Below, in pieces: positions 1 through 60,264 of a stretch of DNA of 64,000 bases. The DNA lies in NCBI GenBank assembly GCA_030603665.1, contig JAUVXJ010000005.1, positions 1-64,000 of the forward strand, in the 5' to 3' direction. Each line of letters begins with the position of its first letter. Position 1 is the first letter of the stretch. Source of the DNA: Chloroflexota bacterium. GTDB lineage: Bacteria > Chloroflexota > Anaerolineae > UBA7937 > B3-Chlor. The position numbers and the translations under genes are program-made. The notes beneath the pieces are model-generated. The model saw only the letters and a list, made by a program, of their open reading frames with translations. It did not search any database and was not told where the DNA came from.

Positions 1-733
1 GAGCGTTGAGGAACTCACTGCCGTTATCGGGATGGATTTCCAGCACCGGGAAGGGGACACGAGCCAAGATGCGGCGGAAGCCATCTTCCATGGCCCTGTA
101 ACTGCGGCCCAGCGTGGCCACCTGCTCGGCCCAGCCAGTAGCCACATCGACCATCTGGATGGTATGGACATAGTGACCGGAACTACTGATGCCACAGTGA
201 TGGACTGCGTCTACTTCGAAATGCCCTGGTTGTTGTTCGTTCCAAGGGATCCGTCTCATAGGGATCTCTCGGGCTACTCTATTGGCTTGGGCAGGGCCTT
301 TACGAGGCAGGCGGCGCTCATCTTGCCGAATGCGATTCAGGACCCGTCTCACCGTGGAGACGCTGATCCGGCTCAATTGATCCAAGAGGAGTTGTGAGAC
401 CTCGAGTTCACCATGGCGGGCCAGATGAGTGGCCATCCCGACCAGAGTGGGCTGGAGCCGTTCTGCGCAGATATAGTCAAGGCTCTCGGAGATGACCCGC
501 AACGGGTGATCAACTTCAGGACCATAAGTGCGTCCCCGCTGCCTATGGCGGGGTCTTCGCTCCAATCTACCCGACATGAGGCGGATCAGACTCTTGCGAT
601 GCAAGCCTGTCACGGCCGCCATCTCATCCAGCAAGCGCCCCCGCTCCAACTTGCTCGCTTTCAGATACCGCTTCTTGATCAGCCGCAGATACTTCCTACG
701 TTCGTCTCTCGTCATCTTCTCTTTGCTGGGCAT
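1..733 (-). CDS. DDE integrase-core transposase, N-terminal part (cut by window edge)
   Basis: The minus strand is open without a stop from an ATG at 733 to the left edge (244 codons), so only the C-terminal part is missing. The first 60 residues are basic and look like a helical DNA-binding start (MPSKEKMTRDERRKYL, then GRLLDEMAAVTG). The catalytic core begins near residue 165 with GHFEVDAVHHCG (first Asp) and reaches EIHPDNGSEF (second Asp) near the edge; the last acidic residue lies outside. The order D...HPDNG is that of integrase-core (rve) transposases of the IS481/ISNCY kind. It would cut and join the ends of its own element. Two plus-strand readings of the same DNA are shadows. Confidence 0.88.
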   Translation of the reverse strand, partial: MPSKEKMTRDERRKYLRLIKKRYLKASKLERGRLLDEMAAVTGLHRKSLIRLMSGRLERRPRHRQRGRTYGPEVDHPLRVISESLDYICAERLQPTLVGMATHLARHGELEVSQLLLDQLSRISVSTVRRVLNRIRQDERRLPRKGPAQANRVAREIPMRRIPWNEQQPGHFEVDAVHHCGISSSGHYVHTIQMVDVATGWAEQVATLGRSYRAMEDGFRRILARVPFPVLEIHPDNGSEFLNA

Positions 734-6787: not shown

Positions 6788-8026
6788 ATGAACACACTGT
6801 CACACGGAGACGTGGTCGAACGCATAGCATCGGTCACAGCTAGCCGACCGCTTGCATCAGCCGTGCAGAGGTCGGTTGCTGCGGCAATCAGGTGCCCTTC
6901 TATTCGTCTTGTTGCCGATGGGACCGTCTGGGACGTATTCGAGACATCGCTGAACGCCGCTATACGGGACATCGCGGAACATCCACTAGGTAAGCTCTTT
7001 CGGCGCCTGATAAGATACGGCCCCCATGACCCAGACTTCCCTCAATCTCTGGTCAGTGACAATGAGACGACTCTCTCTGATCCTGAGTGTGCTTCGGCCC
7101 TTCAGTTCATCTTTTCCCATATGGTCAACCGATTCAAAGGTGAACTGTCTGAACTTCTCGCCATGGAACCCTGCACCGAGCTTGTCCATCTGTTGCGGCA
7201 GGAGGGGGATATACCTGCGGGAGCCACTCTGTACTGGGGTGACACGGTTGAAGAGCGTCGCAGAATCAGCAAGACAGGTCAAGGAGATGGTATGCGGTGG
7301 GGCAGCTTCACAAAGGGAGCTGACGGATTGATCGTGGAGCACATGCCAACCCCACGAGAGGAATTGGGAGTTTCGCTTGGGATACATGGGATTGTCGAAG
7401 TCAAGTCCATGCCGCTACCCAAGAAACGAGTGCTTGTTCAGATCAAGAATCACATGACTAGACTGGGCGGAGGGGTCAGACTGGCAGGGCAGGAGTTTCT
7501 TCGTGATGACATACGTATCAACAGTACGAGCGTGATTCGTATCATGGCATTGCCTTCTACCTGGAAGCTGAGTCGGGAATGGCGTAGAGAGGAGGGGGAA
7601 AGAGCAATAACGTTTCCGGAGCCCCCTGAGCCACCAGTCGAAACACGGATAGAGAAGATAGAACCCAATCTATGGAGAATCACACTTGCTTGGTCGAAGG
7701 AATCACTTGAACAAGCAGCCTATGAAATGACCTTTGGATATATGGCTCAAGTGGGGAGGCACGTATTCGCTGGAGAAGCCATGCCGAAAGAGTGGGAAGA
7801 CATGACGCCGGACGAAGCCGGACGCAATGCCATCAAAATGATGCTTTACTACATTCCTCTTCGCCCTATCTCCAAGCATCACGTGCGGCTTGCCACCAAA
7901 CTGTACAATATCTACTCTTTCGGCTATCCACTTGGAGCCGATAGCAGACAAATGCTGTGGCCAGAGGATTTTCCTGACGAGTATCTCGGTGCAGCAAGGA
8001 CAATCGACTTGACAGCGCGCTCGTGA
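6788..8026 (+). CDS. Uncharacterised protein with PD-(D/E)XK nuclease-like core (cassette gene 1)
   Basis: 412 residues, not recognised as a named family. The centre has a restriction-enzyme-like pattern: an Asp in GADGLIV (D179), then IVEVKS (E204, K206), then LVQIKNH (Q218, K220), with a preceding acidic helix FKGELSELL. This spacing is typical of the PD-(D/E)XK fold. The rest is mixed alpha/beta with no membrane segment. The start ATG follows GGAGAGCAGAGACGG. It is 78 bp upstream of a second nuclease-like gene on the same strand. Its base composition looks more A/T-rich than the metabolic operon before it, suggesting acquisition. DNA cleavage or binding is inferred only from the motif. Confidence 0.7.
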   Translation: MNTLSHGDVVERIASVTASRPLASAVQRSVAAAIRCPSIRLVADGTVWDVFETSLNAAIRDIAEHPLGKLFRRLIRYGPHDPDFPQSLVSDNETTLSDPECASALQFIFSHMVNRFKGELSELLAMEPCTELVHLLRQEGDIPAGATLYWGDTVEERRRISKTGQGDGMRWGSFTKGADGLIVEHMPTPREELGVSLGIHGIVEVKSMPLPKKRVLVQIKNHMTRLGGGVRLAGQEFLRDDIRINSTSVIRIMALPSTWKLSREWRREEGERAITFPEPPEPPVETRIEKIEPNLWRITLAWSKESLEQAAYEMTFGYMAQVGRHVFAGEAMPKEWEDMTPDEAGRNAIKMMLYYIPLRPISKHHVRLATKLYNIYSFGYPLGADSRQMLWPEDFPDEYLGAARTIDLTARS

Positions 8027-8104
8027 GGGCGGCCGCGCGGCACGTCTGATACGTCCTGGGCAGACAACTCTCGGCCGACGAGCAGAGACTGCGAGGTATG
8101 AACA

Positions 8105-10411
8105 GTGAGTAAGCGAGTTCGGGCAAAGCGCAAGGCACGGCTGCTGAAGGTAGCAGCCACACAAGCGAAACCGGCCACCGTATCGCTTCGACCGCTGCGG
8201 TTGGCGTTTCTCCTGCGCACCGATGCGTCGGGTGAAGCTGTCCTGACGTGTATCCGGCACAGCACTTCCGTGTGGGGAGGCGTTTTCAGCGCGCTAGTAC
8301 CCACAGATGGGCAAACACTTAGTGAAGACTGGTGGCAAGTGCTCCGTAACCACGACCCGGACATGATCGTCTGTTGTGGCTCGGTCAGCGGACGACTTCG
8401 AGGTCAAATCGGTGATCTCGTTCAGCCGTTTAACGTGGCGTCGTGGCCGGAGGACGATATGGACAGTCAGTCCTCGTCGCTCATACGTTCCGGCAGCCTA
8501 CCGATGGCGGGAGTTCTGCGGCACGTCTACGACGTGAATCGACCGATCGAGCAATCTAGGGTCCGTCTCGCCAAGGCGCCCGAGCACGCACCCCTGAGGT
8601 ATTGTGCCGCTGCTCAGTTCGGCCTGACGGGTGACGATCTTACGGAGATCTACACCGAGGCATTTCGCGCCGAGGTCATAGACCTTCGAGGTGGCGATTT
8701 CCGCGCGTACATGGCCGGGCTGTCCGTGTTCCGGGATCAGTTGTCGCCACTTGACATGACCAGATGGGGTATTAGCACTTCGGCCGAAGAGGGCCCTGCT
8801 CCCGCTGGACTAAGTCTAGTGTTCTTTGGCGCCGAGCGCTGGATCGAGGACTTGTGCGTCTTCTGGAACCTGAGAATGTGCCCGCACGTTGTGTACAAGG
8901 AGGTCATCGCCCTGCCTATCGATCTGCTCAGATCAAGGAGCAACCTGAACATCTTGGCTCGCTGGTGCAATGAAAACGTGCAAGGCGCCAACTACATTAA
9001 CCTCGTTTCGGCTACCGTCAGCAGACGTCGGCTGCTGGGACTGAGAAACAGGCTGAAACCCCTCTTGGGCGGTCGTATTCAGCTCGTGCACATCTGGCAC
9101 GATCGCTTCGGGATTGAGAGATTCCGCGCATTCGAGAGCGAGCATCCCAGGGAGGCGACTGCCGAAGACGGTGAGTTCAGGCTTGCAGTCCCCCGGCTCA
9201 AGTTGTCGGACGTCACCAGATCTGGCGACCAGTGGGTGCTGGACGTCGACTTCGCCGATCGCTTTCGTTCGAGGCTAGGGTATGTTCCGCCACGGTTCGG
9301 GGGGCTCAACCGCCTCCTTTTTGGGCAACCCTCCAACCTAGGGCTTCCGGCGCCTGACAACTCCCCCGCCCGACTCGCGCACAGTCGGCTGTCGTACCGC
9401 GTGCGGGACCGAACGGAGAACTTGCATGCATACCTCCCGGCTGCCGAGGCGCTTTTCGTCTCCCTGCTCGAGCGAAAGGGATATAGCTGCTCAACCACAG
9501 ACAAGTGCCGCTACATCACGGGTATCATCAACCTATTCGGAGGCTATTCCAAAGCCGACATGCTGCAGGACGGTAGCGTGCGACAGTTGTTGGAGCGCAT
9601 GTGCCGCTCCGGCGCTCACACAGCCGACGAGATGAGGCAGGTGTTGAGACCAGGGGACTCCGCAAGGGACGTGAGCGAACTCGTGCAAGACCTGGCGCGC
9701 GATGGCGTCTTCCTGCGTGGATACACAATCCAGTGCCCTGCCTGCGACCTGACTCAATGGTACCCCCTCCAGGCCCTATCAGAGGCCATGGCGTGCGCCG
9801 GGTGCCTCTCCGCCATCCAGCCGCCACCAGAGGCACCGTTCTCCTACAAACTGAATGAGTTAATGGTTCGCGGCATTCAGCAGGGCGCCATCCCGGTACT
9901 CTTGACCATTCTCGCCCTCTCGACGCTGGCCCGACGGAGCTTCCTACATGCCCCCGGCATCGAAGTGCGCCGTGGGGGCATCAGGACGGACCTAGACCTG
10001 CTGGCGTCCTGCGATGGTGAACTGCTGATGGCGGAATGCAAGGATTTGCGGCAAGGCTGTAGCCGCGAATCGGTACGGGAAATCGGCAGCACGCTAGAGG
10101 AGCTGGCACAGATTGCAGAGCATGTTGGAGCAAGGGTCATCTTCCTTAGCAGCCTCATGGAGGTCGCCCCGAAAGCTCTTGCGTCCCGCATCTGCCGTGT
10201 TGCCCGACGTCACGCGCACTTGGGGATACACATGATCTCGGGGCCAGACCTGACCCGAGGGTACCTCTGCGCCGCCGAAGCAGACACCCCCGCCTTGGGT
10301 CCTCCAGAAACCGATGTGAGGGCACATTTGCATGACTTTCTGCCAATGCCTCGTACCTCCGGTAGCGACGGCTGGTCGAGAGAATCCGGTCAATCGCGGG
10401 CGTATGCTTGA
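8105..10411 (+). CDS. Large uncharacterised protein: zinc ribbon plus C-terminal restriction-endonuclease-like domain (cassette gene 2)
   Basis: 768 residues. The basic N-terminus leads into an alpha/beta region with SVWGGVFSALVP and NHDPDMIVCCG. A long middle part carries no motif I can name. Near 544-567 two Cys pairs (CPAC...CAGC) form a probable zinc ribbon. Near 628-645 the pattern RTDLDLLA...LLMAECKDL is a PD-(D/E)XK active site (Asp, Glu-x-Lys), as in Mrr-type restriction domains. The start is GTG 8105 behind GAGGT. A zinc ribbon with a nuclease fold suggests a nucleic-acid sensor/effector. It lies between two other nuclease-like genes on the same strand. Function unknown; defence is inference. 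Confidence 0.7.
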   Translation: MSKRVRAKRKARLLKVAATQAKPATVSLRPLRLAFLLRTDASGEAVLTCIRHSTSVWGGVFSALVPTDGQTLSEDWWQVLRNHDPDMIVCCGSVSGRLRGQIGDLVQPFNVASWPEDDMDSQSSSLIRSGSLPMAGVLRHVYDVNRPIEQSRVRLAKAPEHAPLRYCAAAQFGLTGDDLTEIYTEAFRAEVIDLRGGDFRAYMAGLSVFRDQLSPLDMTRWGISTSAEEGPAPAGLSLVFFGAERWIEDLCVFWNLRMCPHVVYKEVIALPIDLLRSRSNLNILARWCNENVQGANYINLVSATVSRRRLLGLRNRLKPLLGGRIQLVHIWHDRFGIERFRAFESEHPREATAEDGEFRLAVPRLKLSDVTRSGDQWVLDVDFADRFRSRLGYVPPRFGGLNRLLFGQPSNLGLPAPDNSPARLAHSRLSYRVRDRTENLHAYLPAAEALFVSLLERKGYSCSTTDKCRYITGIINLFGGYSKADMLQDGSVRQLLERMCRSGAHTADEMRQVLRPGDSARDVSELVQDLARDGVFLRGYTIQCPACDLTQWYPLQALSEAMACAGCLSAIQPPPEAPFSYKLNELMVRGIQQGAIPVLLTILALSTLARRSFLHAPGIEVRRGGIRTDLDLLASCDGELLMAECKDLRQGCSRESVREIGSTLEELAQIAEHVGARVIFLSSLMEVAPKALASRICRVARRHAHLGIHMISGPDLTRGYLCAAEADTPALGPPETDVRAHLHDFLPMPRTSGSDGWSRESGQSRAYA

Positions 10412-10541
10412 TTCTCACTGGAGCCGTTGCCGGCGGATGGTCGACAATCGAACGATGAGATGACACGCATCTACCAGATCCGCGATTCTTAGCCCGGAGA
10501 ACCCTCACTGCATCAACACCATCGATGAAACTCGGGGCCAT

Positions 10542-11261
10542 GTGCCGCCCACTCCGCCAAGGAAAATGACTCCCCACAAGGCAGCTCTAGGCGACGCGCT
10601 CCAAAGCACAACCAGGGAGGCCATGTCATGTCTCGCTGGTTTGTTCAGGCAGGACCCGACTGCTTTCGTCGGAGACGCGGAACTGTGTTCCAGACTCTCA
10701 GCCCTTCTGGCAGGCCATTCCTCATTCACCGTGGAGACGCCCGACGGACCCGTGTCCCTGACCAGCCAGCAGTACCCCACTCCCTTCAAGTGCCAGATGG
10801 GCGATTTGAGATTCGAGGTGCTGGAGGACGGCGCACGTGCCGAGCGCGGGCGCTACGACCTTGTCATTCTCAATCCATGGTGGGTGGACAAGGTCTCTCC
10901 AGAGGCCACCAATAGCGACGATTTCGCCTTGTTCCGCCAGGAGATCAGAGACGCCGCAAAGCCGGAAGATCCCCCCCTGTGTCTCGTCGGTATCGAGATT
11001 CACCTGGTGCGATCCGAGCGGGCACGCCTGGCTGACTACAGTCGCATACGCCAGGGCTATCGCAAGCTGCTGCTGTCGGGCAGTCTACCCAACGGATGGC
11101 GATTCATGGACCACCGGTACATGCTCGTCTACAGCCAACACTCGCAGCCCCACGAGGCAAAGTGGAGAGAGCTGATGGAGACCGCGTGGGCCGGAGACGT
11201 CGACCCCAGGAACGTCCGGCTGGCCTGGACCTCTCCTCAGGGAACCAGATGGTCGGGTTGA
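10542..11261 (+). CDS. Uncharacterised protein with degenerate PD-(D/E)XK-like motif (cassette gene 3)
   Basis: 239 residues from GTG 10542; an in-frame ATG at 10566 behind AAGGA is an equally good start (231 residues). The core ERGRYDLVILNPWW (D106), followed by LCLVGIEIHLV (E152, with His at the usual Lys position), resembles the Asp...Glu-x-Lys array of restriction-like folds, in a possibly altered form. The C-terminal LADYSRIRQGYRKLL and MDHRYMLVYS look like ordinary helix/strand structure. It follows gene 2 after 130 bp and ends 76 bp before the acyl-CoA synthetase promoter, so it closes the cassette. No family assigned. Confidence 0.6.
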   Translation: MPPTPPRKMTPHKAALGDALQSTTREAMSCLAGLFRQDPTAFVGDAELCSRLSALLAGHSSFTVETPDGPVSLTSQQYPTPFKCQMGDLRFEVLEDGARAERGRYDLVILNPWWVDKVSPEATNSDDFALFRQEIRDAAKPEDPPLCLVGIEIHLVRSERARLADYSRIRQGYRKLLLSGSLPNGWRFMDHRYMLVYSQHSQPHEAKWRELMETAWAGDVDPRNVRLAWTSPQGTRWSG

Positions 11262-11336: not shown

Positions 11337-11365
11337 TTGATTCACCTCTCTCTCCATGCTATAAT
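11337..11365 (+). promoter_or_regulatory. Sigma-70 promoter of the acyl-CoA synthetase gene
   Basis: TTGATT (11337-11342), 17-nt spacer, TATAAT (11360-11365). Transcription from about 11372 leaves a leader of roughly 140 nt before the ATG at 11515. The leader can fold a stem between CCGGGCA and TGCCCGG near 11393-11418, so part of the control may be in the RNA. Confidence 0.75.
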
Positions 11366-11514
11366 CTCCATCGATGCCACAGGTAACGCCGGGCATCGCG
11401 CTCCTGTGCCCGGTTTGCCCTCGGGGAGCGTCCCTTCGGGTCGACCCCAGGGGCAATCGCAGATGTCTGGCCAAGACGTGGTCACACGACCGTCAGCCCC
11501 ACGAGGTGAAAGAT

Positions 11515-13413
11515 ATGGAACGCACCATGTTCGACTACTTCCATAGAACCGTGGAGCGATTCCCCGACAGGGACTTCCAGCGCATCAAGAAGGGCAAGTC
11601 CTTCTACGGAGTAACCTACCAGCAAGCCTATGAGAAAGTCCTCGAGACAGGCACCGGCCTGATCAGCTTTGGCGTCGGAAAGGGCGACTACGTCGGAGTG
11701 ATCTGCGACAATCGCCCAGAATGGATACTGATCAACCTGGCCCTCCAAGGGATCGGCGCACCCGACGTGCCCCGCGACTCGGCGGTTCCCCTGCCCGAAT
11801 TAAGGAGCATAATCGACGACTGCAAACCAAGATTCCTGATCGTCGAGGACGAGGAGGTACTGGATAGGATACTTCCCCTCATGGACACCTTCCCCTCCAT
11901 ATCGGGCCTATTCGTCATAGACGGCGCCTCCAGAGTGGGCGAGAACGTGTACTCCCTTGATGACGTGCTCACCGAAGGCAGAACTCAGCTGGAACGCGGT
12001 AGCAACGCACTGCTGGAAGCGGCCGAGCGGGTGTCGCCAGATGACGTATCAACCATCGTCTACACATCCGGCACTCAGGGTATCCCCAAGGGCACCATCA
12101 TCATGCACGCCAGTTTCTCCTACATCTTTGAGGTTGTACCACCGCTCCTGGACTTGACGGAGAATGACCGAGTTCTGAGCTTTCTGCCGCCCTGGCACCT
12201 CTTAGAGAGGGCCATAGATTACATCGTCTTCGCCCTGGGCGCGTCCATGTCCTACACCACCCCTAAAGACGTCCTGAGGGACATTGCGCTGGAGAAGCCG
12301 ACTTTCTTCGTCTCAGTGCCCAGAGTTTGGACCGCGGTTTACGAGCGGGCGCGCACGGAGATGAAGCGTCAAAGACCACCGCTCGACCGCCTGCTGCCTG
12401 GCCTGGTCGAAAAGGCCATCCTCTACAAGAAGGCCATCAACAGGAGAAAGGGGAGGTATCCATATCCGACGAAGGATGCGGGTGGTCGAGTCAGAGCCTG
12501 GAGGGATTCCGCATCCAATTTCGTGGCTTACAGGATCGCCGACCTTCTGGTCTTTTCTCGGTTGCGGAAAATGCTTGGAGGAGAACTGAGGGGGGCTGTG
12601 TTCGGCGGGGCTCACCTGCCTGAGCACGTAGAGGATTTTCTTGACGCCGCTGGGCTAGAGGTGGTGGAGGCTTACGGCATGACAGAAGCAGCCCCAGTCC
12701 TTACCGTCAGGCTCTTCGGGGGGACGTTGTACACCGCCGGCAAGCCCATCCCCGGGACCGAAATCCAGATCTTGGACGAATACCTCAATCCTGTGGAACC
12801 GGGTACAACGGGCGTCATCTACGCCAGAGGTCCCCAAGTGATGAAGGGATACACGAGTCAGGAACTCACAAGGAGGGTCCTGTCGCCGTCTTCGGACGGC
12901 CAATCACTGAAGTGGTACAACACCGGGGATTTCGGAGTGATGACTCCTACCGGTGACCTGAAGATCTTGGGCAGAGTTGGTGATGACTTCAAGCTAGTCA
13001 ATGGGGAATGGGTGATCCCACAACCCATAGAGGACATGATTCGCACCAGCCAGTTCATCCACGAGGTCATGCTGGTGGGCGCAGACAAGAAGTTCGTGGG
13101 CGCCCTGGTCTTCCCCGAGTGGGACAGCCTCGAACGATACGCCAGGGAACACAGCATCAACTATCCAACCGACGACAGGGAAGCCGGGCACATTGCGCTG
13201 TCAAGGAATGAGAAGCTGAGGGCACTGATCGCAGGGGAGATACGGGAAAGGGTATCCGCTGAGAAGGGCATCAGACCTTGGGAAGAGATCGTGAAGTTCG
13301 CCATTGTCCCGCAGGAGCTGCGTTCAGGGGTAGAACTGACGGCAACAATAAAGCTCAGAAGACACTTCATCAGGCAGGAGTACGCGCAACTAATAGACGA
13401 CCTGTATCAATAG
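11515..13413 (+). CDS. Long-chain fatty-acid-CoA ligase (AMP-binding)
   Basis: A 632-residue adenylating enzyme that makes acyl-CoA from a fatty acid, ATP and CoA. Seen in order: the FACS-type N-terminus (FDYFHRTVERFPD), P-loop YTSGTQGIPKGT, linker FVSVPRVW, the EAYGMTEAAPV adenine-site block, YNTGDFGVM with Asp, GRVGDDFKLVNGEWV, and the C-terminal catalytic Lys in LTATIKLRR. The P-loop has Gln where Thr is usual (SGTQG for SGTTG). I choose the ATG at 11515 (GAGGTG six bases upstream) because the extra 47 residues from 11374 do not look like the family. It has its own promoter; otsA follows after 158 bp. Confidence 0.88.
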   Translation: MERTMFDYFHRTVERFPDRDFQRIKKGKSFYGVTYQQAYEKVLETGTGLISFGVGKGDYVGVICDNRPEWILINLALQGIGAPDVPRDSAVPLPELRSIIDDCKPRFLIVEDEEVLDRILPLMDTFPSISGLFVIDGASRVGENVYSLDDVLTEGRTQLERGSNALLEAAERVSPDDVSTIVYTSGTQGIPKGTIIMHASFSYIFEVVPPLLDLTENDRVLSFLPPWHLLERAIDYIVFALGASMSYTTPKDVLRDIALEKPTFFVSVPRVWTAVYERARTEMKRQRPPLDRLLPGLVEKAILYKKAINRRKGRYPYPTKDAGGRVRAWRDSASNFVAYRIADLLVFSRLRKMLGGELRGAVFGGAHLPEHVEDFLDAAGLEVVEAYGMTEAAPVLTVRLFGGTLYTAGKPIPGTEIQILDEYLNPVEPGTTGVIYARGPQVMKGYTSQELTRRVLSPSSDGQSLKWYNTGDFGVMTPTGDLKILGRVGDDFKLVNGEWVIPQPIEDMIRTSQFIHEVMLVGADKKFVGALVFPEWDSLERYAREHSINYPTDDREAGHIALSRNEKLRALIAGEIRERVSAEKGIRPWEEIVKFAIVPQELRSGVELTATIKLRRHFIRQEYAQLIDDLYQ

Positions 13414-26656: not shown

Positions 26657-27742
26657 CTAGGCTAGCGGCCCCTTCTTGCGGGCGTGAGCCTCCAGCGACA
26701 GCTCAATGATCTTGTCTAGGAACTCCATGGGGATCAGGCCTGCCTCGGCCGCCTCGTGGAAGATGCAGGTAGAGGGGGTCATGCCGGGCAAGGTGTTGGG
26801 CTCGGTAACGATCACCTCGCCGTCGATCACAAACCCGTCCATACGGGCATACGCCTTCAGGCCTAGCACTCTGTAGGCCTGCACCATCACGTCTTGCACC
26901 TTCTGGATTGCCTCTTGGGGCAACCTGGCCGGAGTGATGTTCTCACCCTCGCCTGGCAAGAACTTCTCTTCGACTGTGAGGAAGTCCCCCTTGCGAATGG
27001 TCTCCGTGGGCGGAAGGGCCATCAACTCCCGGTTCCCTATCACACCGCAGGTGATCTCCATACCCACCAGCGCCTCCTCGACGAGCGCTGTGGAATCCCA
27101 CCTGAAGGCATTCTCCAGCGCGGCTCCCATCGCGTCCGGTTCCTGCGCCACTGATAACCCTGTGCTGCAACCCTCGCGCGTTGGCTTGACCACACAAGGA
27201 TAGCCCAGGTAGTCCTCTATGCGGCCCAGTATCTCCTCGGGGTCTTCTCCCCATTCCCTCTCCGATACCGCTACATACTTGGGCACTTTGAACCCCGCGG
27301 CTGAGAGCAGCTTCCGCTGCATGTGTTTGTCCATGCCTATGGCCGAGGCCATCAGGCCAGAACCGGTGTATGGTATGCCCAGTAGCTCCAGAAGCCCCTG
27401 AAGGCATCCATCCTCCCCGTATTTGCCATGCAGACCGATATACATGAAATCCGCGACGGTTTTCAGGTCCTCGTAGGCGATTCGAGTGGCCTCCGATTCG
27501 AGACGCTCAGCGATGTCAACGGTCGTGTTCTGTACCAGCAACTGAAGCGGGATTTGCCAGAAACCACCTTGGGCATCCAGGAAGATCGGTATCCCTTCAT
27601 GCTTCTCGGGGTTGAGGTTGAAGAATATGTTGCGACCGCTCTCCAGGGAAATCTCCCTCTCGGAAGACATGCCTCCCAGGATGACACCTACTCTCAGCTT
27701 CGTTCCCCTACCTTGCTCACTCATCTGTCCCATGCCCGTCAC
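26657..27742 (-). CDS. D-Ala-D-Ala ligase paralogue with Phe at the Tyr216 position (possible D-Ala-D-Lac ligase)
   Basis: About 360 residues with the Ddl fold: GGMSSEREISLESG (catalytic Glu), GKYGEDGCLQGLLELLGIPYTGSG, VVKPTREGCSTGLSV, RMDGFVIDGEVIVTEPNTLPGMTPSTCIFHEAAEAG. Two active-site blocks differ from the neighbouring ligase. The omega-loop reads VEEKFLPG, with Phe where E. coli DdlB has Tyr216 (EAKY), and the Ser-Ser loop reads EGCSTG instead of EGSSIG. Tyr-to-Phe at this position is the known change in depsipeptide ligases of Leuconostoc and Lactobacillus. The start is unclear (GTG 27742, ATG 27733 or 27724). Seven bp behind the first ligase. Confidence 0.85.
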   Translation of the reverse strand: MTGMGQMSEQGRGTKLRVGVILGGMSSEREISLESGRNIFFNLNPEKHEGIPIFLDAQGGFWQIPLQLLVQNTTVDIAERLESEATRIAYEDLKTVADFMYIGLHGKYGEDGCLQGLLELLGIPYTGSGLMASAIGMDKHMQRKLLSAAGFKVPKYVAVSEREWGEDPEEILGRIEDYLGYPCVVKPTREGCSTGLSVAQEPDAMGAALENAFRWDSTALVEEALVGMEITCGVIGNRELMALPPTETIRKGDFLTVEEKFLPGEGENITPARLPQEAIQKVQDVMVQAYRVLGLKAYARMDGFVIDGEVIVTEPNTLPGMTPSTCIFHEAAEAGLIPMEFLDKIIELSLEAHARKKGPLA

Positions 27743-27749
27743 TGCCGCC

Positions 27750-28799
27750 CTACAGCGGCCCTCTCTTGGCAGCGTGTGCTTCCAGGGCCAAGTCTATCAT
27801 GCGGTCGAAAAGCATCGCCGGAGTCATCCCCATGTCTGCTGCTTGGTGGAACAAGAAGGAAGAGGGGCTCATGCCGGAGGACGTGTTGGGATCGGTGATC
27901 AGCACCCGATCTCCATCCACCAAGAACCCATCAATCCTGCCGTAGTTCATCATACCCAATGCTCGATAGGCCTTCATGACCTCTTGCTGAATCTTCTCCA
28001 ACAATTCCTTGCTCACCCTGGCCGGGGTGATCTTCTGCGACTGACCCGGCATATACTTGTCCTCGTAGGTCAGATACTCGTTGGTGGTCGCCGTCTCAGT
28101 GGGCATCATGGGCTGGAGTTCGTCGTTGCCCAGTACGATGCACGAGAACTCCAGGCCTTGGAGAAGCTCCTCCACCAGAGCCAGATTGTCCCAGGAGAAG
28201 GCCTCTCTCAACGCATCTTCGATCTGGCTTTCCTCATTGACAACGGAGACCCCAATGCTGGAACCCTCCCGGTCTGGCTTGATCACGCAGGGCAAGCCCA
28301 CCAACTCCACTACCTGCTGGCGAACCCCCTCCGGATCCTCTTCCCAATCCAGATCCTCTACCAACAGCTCCCGCGCCACCTCGACCCCTGCCTGCTTCAG
28401 CACCCTGTGCGCCATGTGCTTGTCCATGCACACCGCAGAGGCCAGAACCCCGGATCCTGTGTAGGGAAGGCCCAACATCTCCAGCGCGCCCTGCACGCAG
28501 CCATCGTCTCCATACTTACCATGAAGAGCGATGAATGCAAAGTCGATCAAAGAAGGCAACTCCTCATAATACATTCTCTTCGCCTCGCCCTCGAGCCGTG
28601 CGATGATGTCTGTCGTGGTGTTCTGGATCAGCAACTTGTGTGGAATGTGCCATATTCGCCCGTCCGGATCCATGAACAGGGGGATTGTCTCATGCTTCTG
28701 AGGGTTGAGATGTACGCACACTTGCCTGCCGCTGGCCAGAGACGCCTCCCTCTCAGCAGAGATCCCACCCAAGAGAACACCAACGCGCAATACAGACAT
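27750..28799 (-). CDS. ddl: D-alanine-D-alanine ligase (canonical copy)
   Basis: 349 residues; joins two D-alanines for peptidoglycan precursors. The catalytic Glu is in GGISAEREASLASG, the serine loop is VIKPDREGSSIGVSV, the omega-loop YEDKYMPG has the DdlB-type Tyr, and the metal site is GRIDGFLVDGDRVLITDPNTSSGMSPSSFLFHQAA. The ATG at 28799 is preferred over the one at 28811. Upstream partner of the divergent paralogue; both share an unusual C-terminal tail (LEAHA.K.GPL), so they arose by duplication. Confidence 0.9.
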   Translation of the reverse strand: MSVLRVGVLLGGISAEREASLASGRQVCVHLNPQKHETIPLFMDPDGRIWHIPHKLLIQNTTTDIIARLEGEAKRMYYEELPSLIDFAFIALHGKYGDDGCVQGALEMLGLPYTGSGVLASAVCMDKHMAHRVLKQAGVEVARELLVEDLDWEEDPEGVRQQVVELVGLPCVIKPDREGSSIGVSVVNEESQIEDALREAFSWDNLALVEELLQGLEFSCIVLGNDELQPMMPTETATTNEYLTYEDKYMPGQSQKITPARVSKELLEKIQQEVMKAYRALGMMNYGRIDGFLVDGDRVLITDPNTSSGMSPSSFLFHQAADMGMTPAMLFDRMIDLALEAHAAKRGPL

Positions 28800-28834
28800 G
28801 ATTCCATCCAAGAAACGACCGTCAAGTCTACCCC

Positions 28835-48797: not shown

Positions 48798-49916
48798 ATG
48801 CTCAGGCGTATTCTAGCCATCACACGCAAGGAGATCATCCACATCATCCGGGACCCCAGGTCTCTGAGCATCATGTTCATGATGCCCGTGATCCAGCTCA
48901 TCCTCCTGGGCTACACAGCCACGACAGACGTCGAGCACCTTTCCACGGCGGTCCTGGACCAGGACCAGTCGCCACAGAGCCGAGAACTCGTAGACGCCTA
49001 CCGCGCGTCCAACTACTTCGACGTCCGATTCTACGTGAGCAGCGAAGGAGAGCTGGGCCGCTTGATCGACGCGGGAGAGGCCAAGGCAGGCATCATCATC
49101 CCCGCAGGATACGGCAGGAACCTCACGGGAGACCACGAAGCGTCCATCGCATTCGTCATCGACGGCTCCATACCCAGCGTAGCGGCCACCGCCTTCAGCG
49201 CCGCACAGACGGTGGCTCAGGCCCAGTCGACGGTGCTCATCGAGCAACTCTACGGCATCGACGTGGAGCAACAGGGAGGCATCGATGTGCGGCCCCGCGT
49301 GTGGTACAACCCCGACATGAAGAGCGCCAACTTCATGATCCCTGGACTCATCGCCATGATCTTGCAGATCCAGTCCACCCTCTTCACCGCCCTCTCCATC
49401 GCCCGGGAGAAGGAGGAGGGCACCATCGAGCAACTGATCGTTACCCCTCTCAAATCAATAGAACTGATTGTGGGCAAGGTCATGCCCTATGTCGCGGTCA
49501 GCCTCTTCAACCTCGTAGAGGTGCTGATCATCGGGGTGCTCTGGTTCGGCATACCCGTTCAGGGCAGCGTACTGCTGCTCCTGGCCCTGGGGGTTATTGC
49601 GCTCCTGTCCTCCCTGGGAATCGGCCTTTTGGCCTCCACCATAGCCCACACACAGCAGGAGGCCATTTTCCTCATCTTCTTCCTGATGCTGCCCTTCATG
49701 TTCCTCTCAGGTTTCTTCTTCCCCCTGGAGGCCATGCCCAGGGTGTTGCAGTGGATAAGCTATCTCATTCCTCTCAGGTATCTACTGGTCATCGTCAGAG
49801 GCATCATCCTCAAGGGAGCAGGACTCAGTATCTTGTGGGAGCAGGTTCTGGCCCTGCTGCTCTTCGCCTCAGCCACGCTGGTATTGGCGGCCTCACGCTT
49901 CAGGAAGCGGTTATGA
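48798..49916 (+). CDS. ABC-2 type permease 1
   Basis: 372 residues: one N-terminal TM helix, a large extracytoplasmic domain of about 140 residues (AVLDQDQSPQSRELVDAYRAS, VRPRVWYNPDMKSANFMIPG), then five TM helices with the ABC-2 block SIAREKEEGTIEQLIVTPLKSIELIVGKVMPYV. This is the YhhJ/YbhS/YbhR kind of permease that works with a HlyD adaptor. Its stop overlaps the next start by 4 bp. Confidence 0.9.
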   Translation: MLRRILAITRKEIIHIIRDPRSLSIMFMMPVIQLILLGYTATTDVEHLSTAVLDQDQSPQSRELVDAYRASNYFDVRFYVSSEGELGRLIDAGEAKAGIIIPAGYGRNLTGDHEASIAFVIDGSIPSVAATAFSAAQTVAQAQSTVLIEQLYGIDVEQQGGIDVRPRVWYNPDMKSANFMIPGLIAMILQIQSTLFTALSIAREKEEGTIEQLIVTPLKSIELIVGKVMPYVAVSLFNLVEVLIIGVLWFGIPVQGSVLLLLALGVIALLSSLGIGLLASTIAHTQQEAIFLIFFLMLPFMFLSGFFFPLEAMPRVLQWISYLIPLRYLLVIVRGIILKGAGLSILWEQVLALLLFASATLVLAASRFRKRL

Positions 49917-51034
49917 GCAGTCGTATCTTCTACGTGATCTACAAGGAATTCATCCACATCGTGCGCGACCGTCGCACGCTGGCTGTGATGTTTCTGATTC
50001 CCATCATGCAGCTCATGCTGCTGGGCTACGCCATGACCACCGATGTGGACCACATCCCCACCGTGGTCCTGGACCAGGACCTCACGTCTCAAAGTCGCGA
50101 TCTCATCAAGGCCTACCAGGCCTCCACCTACTTCGACGTCACCCACTACGCTACCACCGAAGAGGAACTGCGTCGCCTGATAGACAAGGGGAACGCCCGC
50201 GTAGGTCTGATCATCCCTTACGGCTACGGCCACGACCTGGCGAAGCACCAGAGCGCTCAGGTGTCCTTCGTGATAGATGGATCGGACCCCACGGTGGCCA
50301 GGACAGCCTTTGCCGCTGCCCAGACTGTGGCCCAGGCGAAGTCGATTCAGTTGGCGGGGGAGAAGATCGGCCTCACCCTGGAGACCCTGCCCGGCGTGAG
50401 CGTCCACCCTCGCGTGTGGTACAACCCCAACATGAAGAGCATCAACTTCATGATTCCAGGACTGACCGCCCTCATCTTGCAGTTTCAGACCACACTCTTC
50501 ACGGCCCTATCCATCGTACGAGAGCGTGAACAGGGCACCATCGAGCAGTTGATGGTCACTCCCATCAGGCCGCCGGAGTTGATACTGGGCAAGATCCTGC
50601 CCTACGTGGCCATCGCCTTCCTCAACCTGGCGGAGGTATTGATCATCGGTGTCTTCTGGTTTGGCGTGCCCATCAGGGGAAGCGTGACTTTGCTCCTGGC
50701 TATCTCCACGCTGTTCCTCCTGACCACCCTTGGACTGGGCATCCTTATCTCCACCATAGCCAGGACGCAGCAAGAGGCGATGTATCTCAGCTTCTTCACG
50801 CTCCTGCCCTCCATGTTCCTGGCCGGGTTTCTCTTCCCCGTGGAGGCCATGCCCACAGCGCTACAGGTGATCAGCTACGTCATACCGCTACGTTACATGC
50901 TGACCGTCGCCAGCGGCATCATACTGAAGGGCGTCGGGCTGCGTATCCTATGGCCTGAAGTGCTCGCCATCGCCATCTTCGGGGTTGTCATCTTCGGTGT
51001 GGCTGTCAGGCGCTTCCGGAAACGGCTGGAGTGA
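49913..51034 (+). CDS. ABC-2 type permease 2
   Basis: 373 residues, a close paralogue of permease 1: VVLDQDLTSQSRDLIKAYQAS, VHPRVWYNPNMKSINFMIPG, REREQGTIEQLMVTPIRPPELILGKILPYVA. Starts at the ATG inside the previous stop. The two may form the heterodimer of one exporter, as YbhR and YbhS do; no ATPase follows directly. Confidence 0.9.
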   Translation: MSSRIFYVIYKEFIHIVRDRRTLAVMFLIPIMQLMLLGYAMTTDVDHIPTVVLDQDLTSQSRDLIKAYQASTYFDVTHYATTEEELRRLIDKGNARVGLIIPYGYGHDLAKHQSAQVSFVIDGSDPTVARTAFAAAQTVAQAKSIQLAGEKIGLTLETLPGVSVHPRVWYNPNMKSINFMIPGLTALILQFQTTLFTALSIVREREQGTIEQLMVTPIRPPELILGKILPYVAIAFLNLAEVLIIGVFWFGVPIRGSVTLLLAISTLFLLTTLGLGILISTIARTQQEAMYLSFFTLLPSMFLAGFLFPVEAMPTALQVISYVIPLRYMLTVASGIILKGVGLRILWPEVLAIAIFGVVIFGVAVRRFRKRLE

Positions 51035-51087
51035 GAATGCACGGTAGTCAGGCCAGTGAGGGGAACCTCCAGGCGATGAGAACAGTC

Positions 51088-51116
51088 TTGACAACGATCC
51101 AACATCGCAGTATACT
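51088..51116 (+). promoter_or_regulatory. Consensus promoter of the second TetR unit
   Basis: TTGACA (51088-51093), 17-nt spacer, TATACT (51111-51116). Confidence 0.82.
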
Positions 51117-51138
51117 TTGGTTGGACGGCCAACCAAAG
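51115..51138 (+). promoter_or_regulatory. Palindromic TetR operator 2
   Basis: Arms CTTTGGTTGG and CCAACCAAAG, perfect over 10 bp with the 4-bp centre ACGG, overlapping the -10 box. The sequence is unlike operator 1, so the two TetR proteins see different sites. Confidence 0.82.
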
Positions 51139-51153
51139 AACCCAGGAGCGACT

Positions 51154-51756
51154 ATGTGTGCACGACCGCGTTCGGACGAGAAGGCCCAGGCGATCCTCAA
51201 GGCCGCCCGTGCCTGCCTTGGTGAGCGCGGCTACGCTGCCACCACCATCGCTGAGATCGCCACGCAAGCGGGAGTCAGCCGTGGCCTGTTACACTACTAC
51301 TTCAAGAGCAAGGAGGAGCTGCTCGCGCAGGTGGTACGGGCCGGTACCGATGCCCATGCGGAGCTATTGGAACCCATGTTCGCCAGAAGCGAGAGTGCCG
51401 ACGATCTGGCAGAGGGGCTCGTCGGGGCAGTCCGGGCCATTGTCGAGAGCGACCCTACCTTTGTCAACCTGAGCATGGAGTGCTGGACCCTGGCACACGA
51501 AAGCTCTTTGGTGGCCCGTGAACTGGAGGATCTCTACCGCCAGCTCAGAGACGCGGTTTGCGAAGGACTGCAAGAAGCCAGAGGCCGAGGTATCATACAG
51601 CCGGCGATTCCTCTGGACGCTCTGGCAGCCCTGCTGCTGGCCCTCACCGACGGCCTCGTGATGCAGTTTCTCATTCACCCGGAGTTGGCAGCCGACGAGA
51701 CCATATGGGCCGGCTTGGAGATGGCAGCGCGCTCCTTGCTGGGGGACGGAGCGTGA
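51154..51756 (+). CDS. TetR-family repressor 2
   Basis: 200 residues; HTH at about 15-60 (ILKAARACLGERGYAATTIAEIATQAGVSRGLLHYYFKSKEEL), then a helical ligand domain. Start ATG 51154 behind AGGAG; the upstream codons in the same frame lie over the promoter. It has its own promoter and palindrome and sits between the first permease pair and the rest of the array, so it probably controls the second part. Confidence 0.92.
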   Translation: MCARPRSDEKAQAILKAARACLGERGYAATTIAEIATQAGVSRGLLHYYFKSKEELLAQVVRAGTDAHAELLEPMFARSESADDLAEGLVGAVRAIVESDPTFVNLSMECWTLAHESSLVARELEDLYRQLRDAVCEGLQEARGRGIIQPAIPLDALAALLLALTDGLVMQFLIHPELAADETIWAGLEMAARSLLGDGA

Positions 51757-51871
51757 TGGGCTGGATCTGGCGCCCCTTGCGGTGCGGCCGATCTGCGAGT
51801 GACCCTCGACGACCGTTGAGGCAGGCGCTCCGTGGTTGGTCTCTAGAGAGCGGAAGAAGGAGGTAGGTAGT

Positions 51872-52147
51872 ATGCTTGGTAACCTGGTCGTAGCCGTCAT
51901 CTTGCTCGTCGTGGGAGTCTTGACTGGCTGGGGGATTCCTCTGGCTGCCAAGAGTTCACGGCCCTACAGCCTGCTCGGCGACCTCCTGGCCAGCGCATTG
52001 ACCATGTTGGTGCTCGGTCTGGCGGAGTGGGTATTCATCCTGCCAGCGCTTGGTATCACGGGTTGGATGGCGATGGCGATCGCCATCGGCGAGCCGTGGT
52101 TCTTAGCCTTGATCGTCCTGTGGCTTATGCGCCGAGTCAAGAGCTAG
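51872..52147 (+). CDS. Small three-TM membrane protein in the exporter array
   Basis: 91 residues, ATG 51872 behind AGGAGGTAGGTAGT. Three hydrophobic helices: NLVVAVILLVVGVLTGWGI, LLASALTMLVLGLAEWVFILPAL and a last one (AMAIAIGEPWFLALIVLWLM) ending RRVKS. No family recognised. It lies between tetR-2 and permease 3 on the same strand with short gaps, so it is likely a small accessory subunit of the exporter. Confidence 0.7.
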   Translation: MLGNLVVAVILLVVGVLTGWGIPLAAKSSRPYSLLGDLLASALTMLVLGLAEWVFILPALGITGWMAMAIAIGEPWFLALIVLWLMRRVKS

Positions 52148-52180
52148 CAGCCTCATCCTGGCCCGCAGAGCGAACGGACT

Positions 52181-53314
52181 ATGGACCTGAGAAGAACTCT
52201 CTCCATCATGCGCAAGGAGATGCGGCACATCCTCCGCGATCGCAGGACCTTCCTCCTGGTCACTGTGTCGCCGGTCTTCCTCATGCTGGTGTTCGCCTAC
52301 TCCATGTCGGTGGAGATCCGGAACGTGTCCATCGCCGTCCTGGACTGCGATCAGAGCACCCTCTCTCGCCGGTATCGAGATGGTCTGGCTAGCACTGGAG
52401 ACATCATCATCCGCTACTCCCCCCGCGACTATGCCGAAATGCAGAGCAGGCTGGAACGCCGGCAGGCCAAGGCCGCGGTAGTCATCCCTTCCGGCTTCGA
52501 GAGAGATCTCCTTAGCGGTCGTGAGACGAGCCTCCAAGTCATCATCGACGGAACCGATCCCAGCACAGCCAATCACACCATGACCCACATCGCGGGATAC
52601 ACCCAGGGGCTGGCCCTGGAGATTCTAGGCGAGGCCCTGGAGCGCCAGGGGCTAGACGCCAGCCTGTTGGCCCCCGTGGAATTGCGCATGAGAACCTGGT
52701 ACAACCCCACCCTGAGACCCATCATCGGCTGGGTACCCGGTCTCATCGCCATCGTGATGGGCATGCCGGCTGTGGCAGCCACGCTGGCCCTGACTGCCGA
52801 GAAGGAGAAGGGAACGCTGGAGGCGCTGATCACCACGCCGGTGAGGCGATCAGAACTCCTTGTCGGAAAACTGATTCCCTATGTCCTGAGCGGGTTGGCG
52901 AGCGCCGTGCTCTGCGCCCTGGTCGCCGTCTACCTGCTGGGCATCCCCTTCCGCGGCAGCCCACTTCTGTACCTCTTGCTCTCGGCCGACTTCTTCCTGG
53001 CCGCCCTTGGCATCTCGTTGCTCATCTCCGTCTTCGTTCCCAGCCAGCAAGCGGCCATGGCGCTTTCATTGCTCATTTTCCTCTTTCCAGGCTTCTTCAT
53101 GTCCGGGCTGTTCTATCCCATAGCCAGCATGCCGGCGGAGATGAAGATGGAAGCCTATCTGATGCCCACCACGCACTACCTGATCATCACCCGGGGCTTG
53201 TTTCTCAAGGGCCTGGACTTGTCCACGCTGTGGCCCTTCGCACTGGCGCTCTTACTCATGGGGGTGGTGGTGACCGGCGCGTCCATCATGATCTTCAAGA
53301 AGAGACTGGGATAG
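52181..53314 (+). CDS. ABC-2 type permease 3
   Basis: 377 residues of the NatB/YhhJ kind: N-terminal MRKEMRHILRDRRTFLLV with TM1, external domain with AVLDCDQSTLSRRYRDGL and RMRTWYNPTLRPIIGWVPG, then TAEKEKGTLEALITTPVRRSELLVGKLIPYVLSG and four further TM helices. Forms one of two duplicated pairs with permease 4; its closest relative in the array is permease 5. Confidence 0.9.
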   Translation: MDLRRTLSIMRKEMRHILRDRRTFLLVTVSPVFLMLVFAYSMSVEIRNVSIAVLDCDQSTLSRRYRDGLASTGDIIIRYSPRDYAEMQSRLERRQAKAAVVIPSGFERDLLSGRETSLQVIIDGTDPSTANHTMTHIAGYTQGLALEILGEALERQGLDASLLAPVELRMRTWYNPTLRPIIGWVPGLIAIVMGMPAVAATLALTAEKEKGTLEALITTPVRRSELLVGKLIPYVLSGLASAVLCALVAVYLLGIPFRGSPLLYLLLSADFFLAALGISLLISVFVPSQQAAMALSLLIFLFPGFFMSGLFYPIASMPAEMKMEAYLMPTTHYLIITRGLFLKGLDLSTLWPFALALLLMGVVVTGASIMIFKKRLG

Positions 53315-53319
53315 CTACG

Positions 53320-54450
53320 ATGCTCCGTCGCATATGGCACATCGCCACCAAAGAGCTGATCCATCTACGGCGTGATATCCTCCTGGTCTCGTTTCTGGTC
53401 TTGGGGCCAGTATCCGAGTTGGTGTTCATCGCCTGGGCCACATCGTCGCCCATCGAACACTTGCCTACGGCCATCGTGGACCGCGACCGCACTGAAGCAA
53501 GCCGGGGACTGGTCGTCGCCCTGGAGAACTCGGAGACCTTTGATGCGATATTCTACCCGGAAAACGACGACGAGTTGATCAGACTTCTCGACGCCGGATC
53601 GGTCTCGGCGGGCGTTGTCATCCCGCCCGGGTTCGGGGAGGGCCTGACGTCATCTGCCTCCGAACAGGCTCAAGTCCAGGTCATCCTGGATGGGTCGGAC
53701 CCCACTGCGGCGCGGACTGCCGAGATGAGCGCCCGGGGGGTGATAGACAGCTACGCCTACGACAGGTTGCTACAGGAGTGGGGCCAGGTCGCCGGTCAGT
53801 CCGGTGAGGTCATCAGCACCGACGTGCGCGTGTGGTTCAACGAGGAGTTGTCGGAAGCCAACTACACTGTGCCTTCGGAGATGGGGTTCATGCTGGCAAT
53901 GGTGGCCTTGATGGTAGCCGCGATCAGCATCGCCAGAGAGCGCGAGCTGGGCACTTTTGAACAGCTGATGGTCACGCCCATCCGCAGCTGGGAGCTGATC
54001 ATCGGCAAGGCGATACCTGCCGTCGTCATCTCCTACCTCGATTTCCTGATTATGTTGGGCATCACCATCTTCGTTTTCGGGGTACCGATGAAGGGTTCCC
54101 TCCCTCTCCTGCTGGTACTGGCCTTGTTCTATATCTTCGTGGAGTTGGGCTGGGGGCTGCTGATCTCCGGCATCTCTCGCACGCAGCTCCAGGCCTTGCT
54201 GCTAGTGATGGTCATCGCCATGGTCAGCATGGTCTTCTCCGGCTATGCGTTCCCGGTGGACACCATGCCCCCACTGATGCAGATGGCCGCCAACCTGGTG
54301 CCCATCAAGCACTGGCTGCTCATCATGCGGGACATTATGCTCAAGGGCGCGGGGATCAGAGTGTTCTGGAGGGAGTTGGTGGCCCTGGCCGTCCTGGGTC
54401 TCATCATCAACGCGTTTACATTGACCGTGTTGCGGAAACGACTGGACTAG
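53320..54450 (+). CDS. ABC-2 type permease 4
   Basis: 376 residues from ATG 53320. External domain with LPTAIVDRDRTEASRGLVVALENSETFD and DVRVWFNEELSEANYTVPSEMG, then ARERELGTFEQLMVTPIRSWELIIGKAIPAVVISY. The IVDRDRT block is shared with permease 6, so permeases 3+4 and 5+6 are two copies of one pair. Confidence 0.9.
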   Translation: MLRRIWHIATKELIHLRRDILLVSFLVLGPVSELVFIAWATSSPIEHLPTAIVDRDRTEASRGLVVALENSETFDAIFYPENDDELIRLLDAGSVSAGVVIPPGFGEGLTSSASEQAQVQVILDGSDPTAARTAEMSARGVIDSYAYDRLLQEWGQVAGQSGEVISTDVRVWFNEELSEANYTVPSEMGFMLAMVALMVAAISIARERELGTFEQLMVTPIRSWELIIGKAIPAVVISYLDFLIMLGITIFVFGVPMKGSLPLLLVLALFYIFVELGWGLLISGISRTQLQALLLVMVIAMVSMVFSGYAFPVDTMPPLMQMAANLVPIKHWLLIMRDIMLKGAGIRVFWRELVALAVLGLIINAFTLTVLRKRLD

Positions 54451-54467
54451 CACCTTAACAAAGGAAT

Positions 54468-56791: not shown

Positions 56792-56818
56792 TAGACAGTA
56801 CAGTACGAGGTACAAGTG

Positions 56819-57796: not shown

Positions 57797-57856
57797 TTCA
57801 GCGAGATTCGTGTCCAGCTTGCCAAAGACCGCACCGACCAACAAGGAGTCAACCTC

Positions 57857-58816: not shown

Positions 58817-58855
58817 CATCCGGCAAGTGACGAAATAGTCAGAGGAGAACAGGCA

Positions 58856-60250: not shown

Positions 60251-60264
60251 AGGGAGGTCAACTG

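What the first reader, a model, noticed from the sequence alone, without database searches (positions are those of the whole stretch)
6788..11261. Three-gene cassette of uncharacterised PD-(D/E)XK-like proteins: candidate new defence or restriction system
Three consecutive plus-strand genes (412, 768 and 239 residues) match no family I can name, yet each shows an Asp...Glu-x-(Lys/His) array: D179/E204-x-K206; D about 628 and E about 643-x-Lys; D106/E152-x-H154. Gene 2 also has a zinc ribbon (Cys pairs at about 544-567). The cassette interrupts a run of metabolic genes a few kb from a transposase. Three nuclease-fold proteins side by side suggest a nucleic-acid targeting system; that part is inference.
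Basis: partly seen in the sequence, partly recalled or inferred. Interest (0 to 1): 0.78.

Follow-up and report, generated by a model that had tools for sequence, protein, structure and literature searches.

The report
Mix-and-match nuclease defence cassette
Three neighbouring genes with no match in the family libraries searched encode what are likely two DNA-cutting enzymes and a related protein that lacks the expected catalytic lysine; they probably form an anti-virus defence module, because relatives of the first two turn up, without the other two genes of the trio, among defence genes or on plasmids of unrelated bacteria.

Summary
In detail: three plus-strand ORFs of 412, 768 and 239 residues (g1, g2, g3) have no significant match in Pfam, NCBIfam, PADLOC, PHROGs or PDB sequences. 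The motif alone is weak evidence (26 of 33 ordinary window proteins contain it), but its conservation is strong. g1 keeps E119, D179 and E204-x-K206 in 121 of 121 sequences. g2 keeps four zinc-ribbon Cys, D631, E644 and K646, even in plasmid-borne kin of about 20% identity. g3 keeps D106 and E152, but position 154 is Lys in 0 of 70, so g3 is likely degenerate; a diverged paralog in the same genome has E-F-K. The g1 family is patchy across phyla: at least 8 of 11 genome loci lie among defence genes, twice directly after a Septu PtuA/PtuB pair. The trio is rare. All 11 of those genomes lack g2 and g3; all three genes are seen together only here and, by equal contig lengths, on one close relative's contig, while pairs g1-g3 and g2-g3 recur. 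Another genus of the family keeps only a 5'-truncated g3. Best reading: a modular, horizontally exchanged nuclease defence cassette.

The parts
6788..8026 (+). g1: 412-aa predicted PD-(D/E)XK nuclease of an unnamed, widely scattered family
   Evidence: ORF; 507 homologs, best 120 listed; invariant E119, G177/D179/G180, E204, K206 and S207 in 121 of 121 rows; no significant family or PDB match. G+C 0.52 at 7001-8000 against about 0.58-0.64 upstream and in g2-g3.
7322..7405 (+). g1 motif stretch D179 ... E204-x-K206
8105..10411 (+). g2: 768-aa protein: N-terminal region of unknown fold, zinc ribbon, C-terminal predicted PD-(D/E)XK domain
   Evidence: nine full-length relatives besides itself at 40-86% identity and one remote hit, P0011; conserved columns.
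9734..9805 (+). g2 zinc ribbon, C544/C547/C564/C567
   Evidence: 11 of 11 rows keep the four Cys; kept in 11 of 12 rows of the remote alignment, the twelfth (L022) being a fragment without this region. Weak zinc-ribbon Pfam hits in remote kin, below cut-off.
9989..10042 (+). g2 catalytic motif stretch D629/D631 ... E644-x-K646
   Evidence: 11 of 11 rows; D631, E644 and K646 kept in remote kin.
10542..11261 (+). g3: 239-aa PD-(D/E)XK-like protein, predicted catalytically degenerate (possible ATG start at 10566)
   Evidence: 69 homologs; D106 in 65 of 70 and E152 in 69 of 70, position 154 never K; remote kin L028, L030 have E-F-K and L031 N-L-K; relationship E 1e-10, profile-profile probability 99%.
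10857..11003 (+). g3 motif stretch D106 ... E152-x-H154
11374..13413 (+). Downstream neighbour (acyl-CoA-synthetase-like by reading), not part of the cassette; used as synteny anchor
   Evidence: Orthologs at 69% identity in G403 and G531; sigma-70-like site 11337-11365 just upstream.

Best explanation
The cassette most likely encodes a modular defence system against foreign DNA, made of two predicted PD-(D/E)XK nucleases (g1 and g2) and one PD-(D/E)XK-like protein (g3) that lacks the catalytic lysine. Shown: the three ORFs, the conserved residues in g1 and g2, the absence of Lys at the third motif position of g3, the defence neighbourhoods of g1 relatives, and the plasmid location of remote g2 relatives. 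Inferred: g3 would act as a non-cutting recognition or control subunit; g2 would read nucleic acid through its zinc ribbon and unknown N-terminal region and cut with its C-terminal domain; g1 would be a second, exchangeable cutter. g3 pairs in different genomes with g1, with g2 or with both, so g3 is the likely hub. With no methylase or ATPase seen in the cassette, self-protection would have to come from recognising a feature of invading DNA or from activation during infection.
For: g1 residues invariant in 121 of 121 and g2 residues in 11 of 11 rows. At least 8 of 11 g1 loci from genome contigs hold defence genes nearby: L002 dCTPase, PDC-S58 and type IIG; L003 methylase and HerA; L009 HsdS and PDC-S02; L007 type I methylase; L008 PtuA+PtuB and type I REase; L010 PtuA+PtuB; L011 NsnA-like; L004 TIR-nSTAND1. 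In L008 and L010 g1 follows PtuB on the same strand by 94 and 78 bases. g1 is patchy: WOR-3, Bacteroidota, Zixibacteria, Nitrospirae, Herpetosiphon, Acidobacteriota, Syntrophaceae, Phycisphaerae and others. Remote g2 kin lie on plasmids beside tyrosine recombinases (L033-L035), toxin-antitoxin genes (L080) or transposases (L081). Remote g3 kin lie by AAA ATPases and HSDR_N (L028) and by a PLD-helicase, DUF559 and Eco57I (L030). Equal longest-contig lengths link g1-g2-g3 (5333), g1-g3 (24721, 25757) and g2-g3 (3602).
Against: All 11 g1-bearing genomes lack g2 and g3. g2 relatives on contigs of 13403, 9708 and 8977 bases have no g1 or g3 of equal contig length in the lists (only 120 of 507 g1 hits listed). 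Profile comparison of the three families with each other and with four known nuclease domains gave nothing (single-sequence references, low power). A crude strand/helix propensity test was inconclusive. The window flanks of the cassette are metabolic genes by reading, not a defence island. PADLOC also hits some ordinary control ORFs.
Confidence: 0.5

Rival explanations
1. The genes are independent passengers in a variable spot: g1 is a solitary defence nuclease, g2 another, and g3 has its own partners; they do not form one system.
For: 11 of 11 other g1 genomes lack g2 and g3; g3 occurs without g1 or g2 in G403; g1 has lower G+C than g2 and g3; gaps of 78 and 130 bases between the ORFs.
Against: Equal contig lengths link g1-g3 on two contigs over 24 kb and g2-g3 on one contig besides the trio contig; the g1 proteins on the two long contigs group with the window's g1 (97/93 support); same strand and order.
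Confidence: 0.27
2. The cassette is a DNA repair or genome-maintenance module of a few lineages, not a defence system.
For: PD-(D/E)XK proteins also act in repair (established knowledge); flanks are metabolic by reading; no phage or viral contig carries a close relative.
Against: Very patchy distribution (g1 in 1 of 396 class genomes, the window's own), at least 8 of 11 g1 loci among defence genes, g2 kin on plasmids.
Confidence: 0.1
3. g3 is an active nuclease of a variant kind, in which His, Tyr or Cys replaces Lys, so the cassette holds three active nucleases.
For: D106 kept in 65 of 70 and E152 in 69 of 70 rows, so metal binding may remain; variants of the third motif residue exist in the superfamily (recalled).
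Against: The third position scatters over H, Y, C, R and Q, unlike a catalytic residue; remote kin have E-F-K, or N-L-K in L031.
Confidence: 0.08

Closest known systems
PD-(D/E)XK nuclease superfamily (Mrr-, Cas4- and restriction-type)
   Same: D ... E-x-K invariant in g1 and g2. One g1 homolog, P0127, is extended by a C-terminal stretch carrying Pfam PF04471 (the name Mrr_cat is recalled).
   Different: No Pfam, NCBIfam, PADLOC or PDB match of g1, g2 or g3; fold not tested.
Septu (PtuA ATPase + PtuB HNH)
   Same: g1 homologs lie directly downstream of PtuA+PtuB in L008 and L010.
   Different: No ATPase and no HNH protein is seen in the window's cassette.
Orc/CDC6 - inactive REase - active REase - HerA/FtsK systems (PMC10853773, section 22 read)
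   Same: They pair an inactive with an active restriction-nuclease fold; the g3 paralog L028 lies beside AAA_16 and ATPase_2 proteins, and L003 g1 lies two genes from a HerA-like ATPase.
   Different: The cassette shows no Orc/CDC6 or HerA/FtsK gene; the iREase there is inserted in the ATPase, whereas g3 is a separate protein.
Type IV / Mrr-like restriction without own methylase
   Same: Nucleases with no methylase seen beside them.
   Different: Two nuclease-type genes plus a degenerate third one; target unknown.

Membership tests
PD-(D/E)XK nuclease, g1 | Conserved Asp and Glu-x-Lys | tested here: met
   D179, E204 and K206 in 121 of 121 rows.
PD-(D/E)XK nuclease, g1 | Alpha-beta core fold | not testable with these tools
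PD-(D/E)XK nuclease, g1 | Match to a known nuclease family profile | tested here: not met
PD-(D/E)XK nuclease, g2 | Conserved Asp and Glu-x-Lys | tested here: met
   D629/D631, E644 and K646 in 11 of 11 rows, two of them the window's own protein; D631, E644 and K646 kept in remote kin.
PD-(D/E)XK nuclease, g2 | Match to a known nuclease family profile | tested here: not met
Active PD-(D/E)XK nuclease, g3 | Catalytic Lys at the third motif position | tested here: not met
   0 Lys in 70 rows.
Active PD-(D/E)XK nuclease, g3 | Conserved acidic pair | tested here: met
   D106 65 of 70, E152 69 of 70.
Septu | PtuA ATPase and PtuB HNH in the operon | tested here: not met
   g1, g2 and g3 have no PtuA/PtuB match; the other window genes were only read, not scanned.
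Restriction-modification | Methyltransferase beside the nuclease | tested here: inconclusive
   None of g1-g3 matches a methylase significantly (g3 has one PADLOC MTase_II hit at E 0.049); flanking genes read as metabolic, not scanned.
Orc/CDC6 - iREase - REase systems | Orc/CDC6 AAA ATPase in the operon | tested here: not met
   No ATPase family match in g1-g3; no such ORF seen at 6788-11261.
Defence system in general | Protects cells from phage or plasmid | not testable with these tools
   Needs a bench assay.

The most novel reading that the evidence does not exclude
A new kind of modular restriction system built only from nuclease-fold proteins, with no ATPase and no methylase: a dead PD-(D/E)XK protein (g3) is the exchangeable sensor or licence that alternately partners two unrelated nucleases (g1 and g2), while g1 is a general add-on cutter that Septu, TIR-STAND and HerA defence operons have also taken up.
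Probability: 0.2. Interest if true: 0.75.

Novelty: new variant of a known kind. Interest (0 to 1): 0.52.

Why it matters
If true, it adds a widespread, unnamed nuclease family (g1, 507 protein clusters found) to bacterial defence, including as a possible third gene of some Septu operons. It would also give a compact case in which a dead nuclease fold controls live ones, a theme proposed for other systems (PMC10853773, section 22). g2 would be a second unnamed family spread on plasmids across several genera.

Tried and rejected
Motif as evidence: rejected by itself, since 26 of 33 ordinary proteins have it. Viral origin: scans of viral contigs found no relatives of g1, g3 or g2 (33, 25 and 13 pattern stretches, none confirmed); g1 and g2 had no match in phages; g3 was not searched in phages. 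Plasmids: no match for g1 or g3 or for the g3 paralog. Promoter/terminator scan: near chance (promoters 3 found against 1.5 expected, sd 1.2; terminators 4 against 2.8, sd 1.5). Flanking repeats: only short, weak ones, no element ends. Profile-profile search for a shared nuclease fold: nothing; one search ran in an unsuitable global mode and was dropped. Propensity test: inconclusive. Wider search for g3 kin in 400 phylum genomes: only the own genome and one weak hit. A conserved small gene before plasmid g2 kin: not found. Papers: search listings showed no title describing these families; text search cannot find a sequence, so absence from print is not claimed.

Rows dropped before counts: for, 99 of 100 ORFs were given (a 2686-aa one left out); for, 68 of 71 (three at contig edges left out). 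The control came from 8 of 11 stretches, because three gave no ORF of 150 aa or more; its stretches are contig starts, 132 kb against 178 kb, and not matched for composition. P0002 is the window's own protein, so g2 has nine other full-length relatives.

Full report
What is there. Three ORFs on the + strand at 6788-8026, 8105-10411 and 10542-11261 have no significant match in Pfam, PADLOC, NCBIfam, PHROGs or PDB. Gaps between them are 78 and 130 bases; g3 may start at the ATG at 10566. The flanking genes read as metabolic (amidase-, UbiD-, aromatic-lyase- and hydantoinase-like upstream, acyl-CoA-synthetase-like and trehalose genes downstream); these names come from reading, not from a scan. 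An rve-type transposase ORF cut by the contig end lies at 2-733.

Is the motif more than chance? The pattern alone is not: 26 of 33 ordinary window proteins have D-x(10,50)-E-x-[KH], 20 of 33 with E-x-K. Conservation is. In g1, E119, G177, D179, G180, E204, K206 and S207 are the same in 121 of 121 rows, and Q218 in 120 (the window and the 120 listed of 507 homologs). In g2, the four Cys, D629, D631, E644 and K646 are kept in 11 of 11 rows, two being the window's own protein. In an alignment with remote kin of roughly 19-30% identity, the Cys, D631, E644 and K646 stay nearly invariant, the exception being a fragment that lacks the region. In g3, D106 is kept in 65 of 70 rows and E152 in 69 of 70, but position 154 is H 39, Y 22, C 6, R 1, Q 1, gap 1. 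A paralog in the same genome (L028; 27% identity, E 1e-10; profile probability 99%) and L030 have E-F-K, and L031 has N-L-K. So g3 most likely lost the catalytic Lys within the superfamily.

Where the relatives live, g1. The genome-contig scan gave 11 loci, from WOR-3, Bacteroidota (3), Zixibacteria, Nitrospirae, Herpetosiphon, an unclassified bacterium, Acidobacteriota, Syntrophaceae and Phycisphaerae. At 8 of 11 I found defence genes near g1: L002, L003 and L009, L007, L008, L010 and L011, and L004 by Pfam TIR_2 and nSTAND1, with no PADLOC hit. L011 is the weakest (NsnA-like, PD-T4-2_A and a UvrD-type helicase). For these calls I chose the ORFs myself: 20 proteins from these 8 loci. L005, L006 and L012 were only in the pooled scan, which shows 25 of 192 families, and partly. 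L005 has 174 bases before g1, L012 is 3.4 kb long, and L006 carries an Endonuclease_NS gene next to g1. In L008 and L010 g1 follows PtuA+PtuB on the same strand after 94 and 78 bases. Control: of 68 ORFs from other contigs of the same genomes, PADLOC at the same threshold listed 67 families, the 25 shown each from one ORF and named GajB, RTasHel, PD-T4-6, mad6, a kinase and PDC-S05, against 192 families led by PtuA, PtuB, type I specificity and type I methylase for 99 neighbourhood ORFs. So PADLOC is not silent on ordinary ORFs; I read the control hits as UvrD helicases and kinases, which is inference, since the call does not say which ORF matched.

g2 and g3. Remote g2 kin lie on plasmids of Rhodococcus and Burkholderia, Piscirickettsia and Streptomyces, with partial matches in Mycobacterium and Hoyosella. 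They sit beside two or three tyrosine recombinases, HTH and PIN genes, toxin-antitoxin genes or IS transposases. g1 and g3 have no match among the 72,556 plasmid records. Chromosomal remote g2 kin in 4 other genomes of a 400-genome phylum sample are partial matches. Two of three remote g3 kin have restriction-type neighbours: L028 (AAA_16, ATPase_2, HSDR_N) and L030 (PLD-helicase, DUF559, Eco57I); L031 has none recognised.

Linkage. All 11 g1 genomes lack g2 and g3 (E 0.001). In class samples g1 is in 1 of 396 genomes (own) and g3 in 4 of 396 (own, G403 and two remote). In the protein lists, equal longest-contig lengths join g1-g2-g3 (5333: P0013, P0001, P0132), g1-g3 (25757: P0015, P0167; 24721: P0016, P0164, each pair with equal contig counts and sources) and g2-g3 (3602: P0004, P0185). 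This is inference from lengths, as the contigs could not be fetched. The g2 lists show no 25757 or 24721, so those contigs may hold g1-g3 without g2; conversely g2 relatives on contigs of 13403, 9708 and 8977 bases show no g1 or g3 of equal length. The g1 proteins of the two long contigs group with the window's g1 (97/93; 3 of 14 inner branches well supported). g3 is thus the common partner.

History. G403, another genus of the family, has g3 alone: profile match from position 35 only and no similar DNA before it. It lies between phosphate-transport-like genes (by reading) and an aminotransferase, followed by the ortholog of the window's downstream gene (69%). G531 has the same transporter, a broken-looking aminotransferase and the synthetase ortholog but no g3 (for G403, 55, 65). 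In the window g1-g2-g3 stand directly before that gene. This fits gain, loss and decay of the cassette at one place. g1 has lower G+C (0.52) than its surroundings.

Mechanism. I commit to defence against foreign DNA by two nucleases with a non-cutting nuclease-fold partner. Shown: residues, contexts, distribution. Inferred: fold, cutting, target and the role of g3. Precedent for pairing an inactive with an active restriction fold: Orc/CDC6 systems (PMC10853773; passages, section 22); membership there fails, as no ATPase is in the cassette. The main rival is that the three are independent passengers.

Noticed in passing
L008:7803-11173 and L010:6958-11194: A g1 homolog follows a Septu PtuA+PtuB pair on the same strand, 94 and 78 bases downstream, in a Herpetosiphon and an Acidobacteriota genome; possibly an unreported third gene of some Septu operons.
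   Followed up: partly
L028:8871-16541 (own genome, contig C25): A diverged g3 paralog with an intact E-F-K lies by an AAA_16 ATPase, a 1267-aa ATPase_2 protein and an HSDR_N protein: a second possible defence locus in the same genome.
   Followed up: partly
P0127: A 566-aa g1 homolog carries a C-terminal extension with Pfam PF04471 and thus two nuclease-like domains in one protein.
   Followed up: no
L002:6995-7906 and L006:11449-12576: A DNA/RNA non-specific endonuclease (Endonuclease_NS) gene lies near g1 in two unrelated genomes.
   Followed up: no
window 2-733 (minus strand): Integrase-core (rve) transposase ORF cut by the contig end; pieces of the element recur in the genome, mostly at contig ends, so it probably broke the assembly.
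   Followed up: partly
L033:9201-12753: On a Rhodococcus plasmid a g2 relative follows an HTH gene and a PIN-domain gene, a toxin-antitoxin-like pair, next to two recombinases.
   Followed up: partly
window 26657-28811 (minus strand): Two neighbouring paralogous genes that read as D-Ala-D-Ala-ligase-like ATP-grasp proteins.
   Followed up: no
window 48798-61521: A long run that reads as ABC-2 permeases, two ABC ATPases and two HlyD-like membrane-fusion proteins.
   Followed up: no
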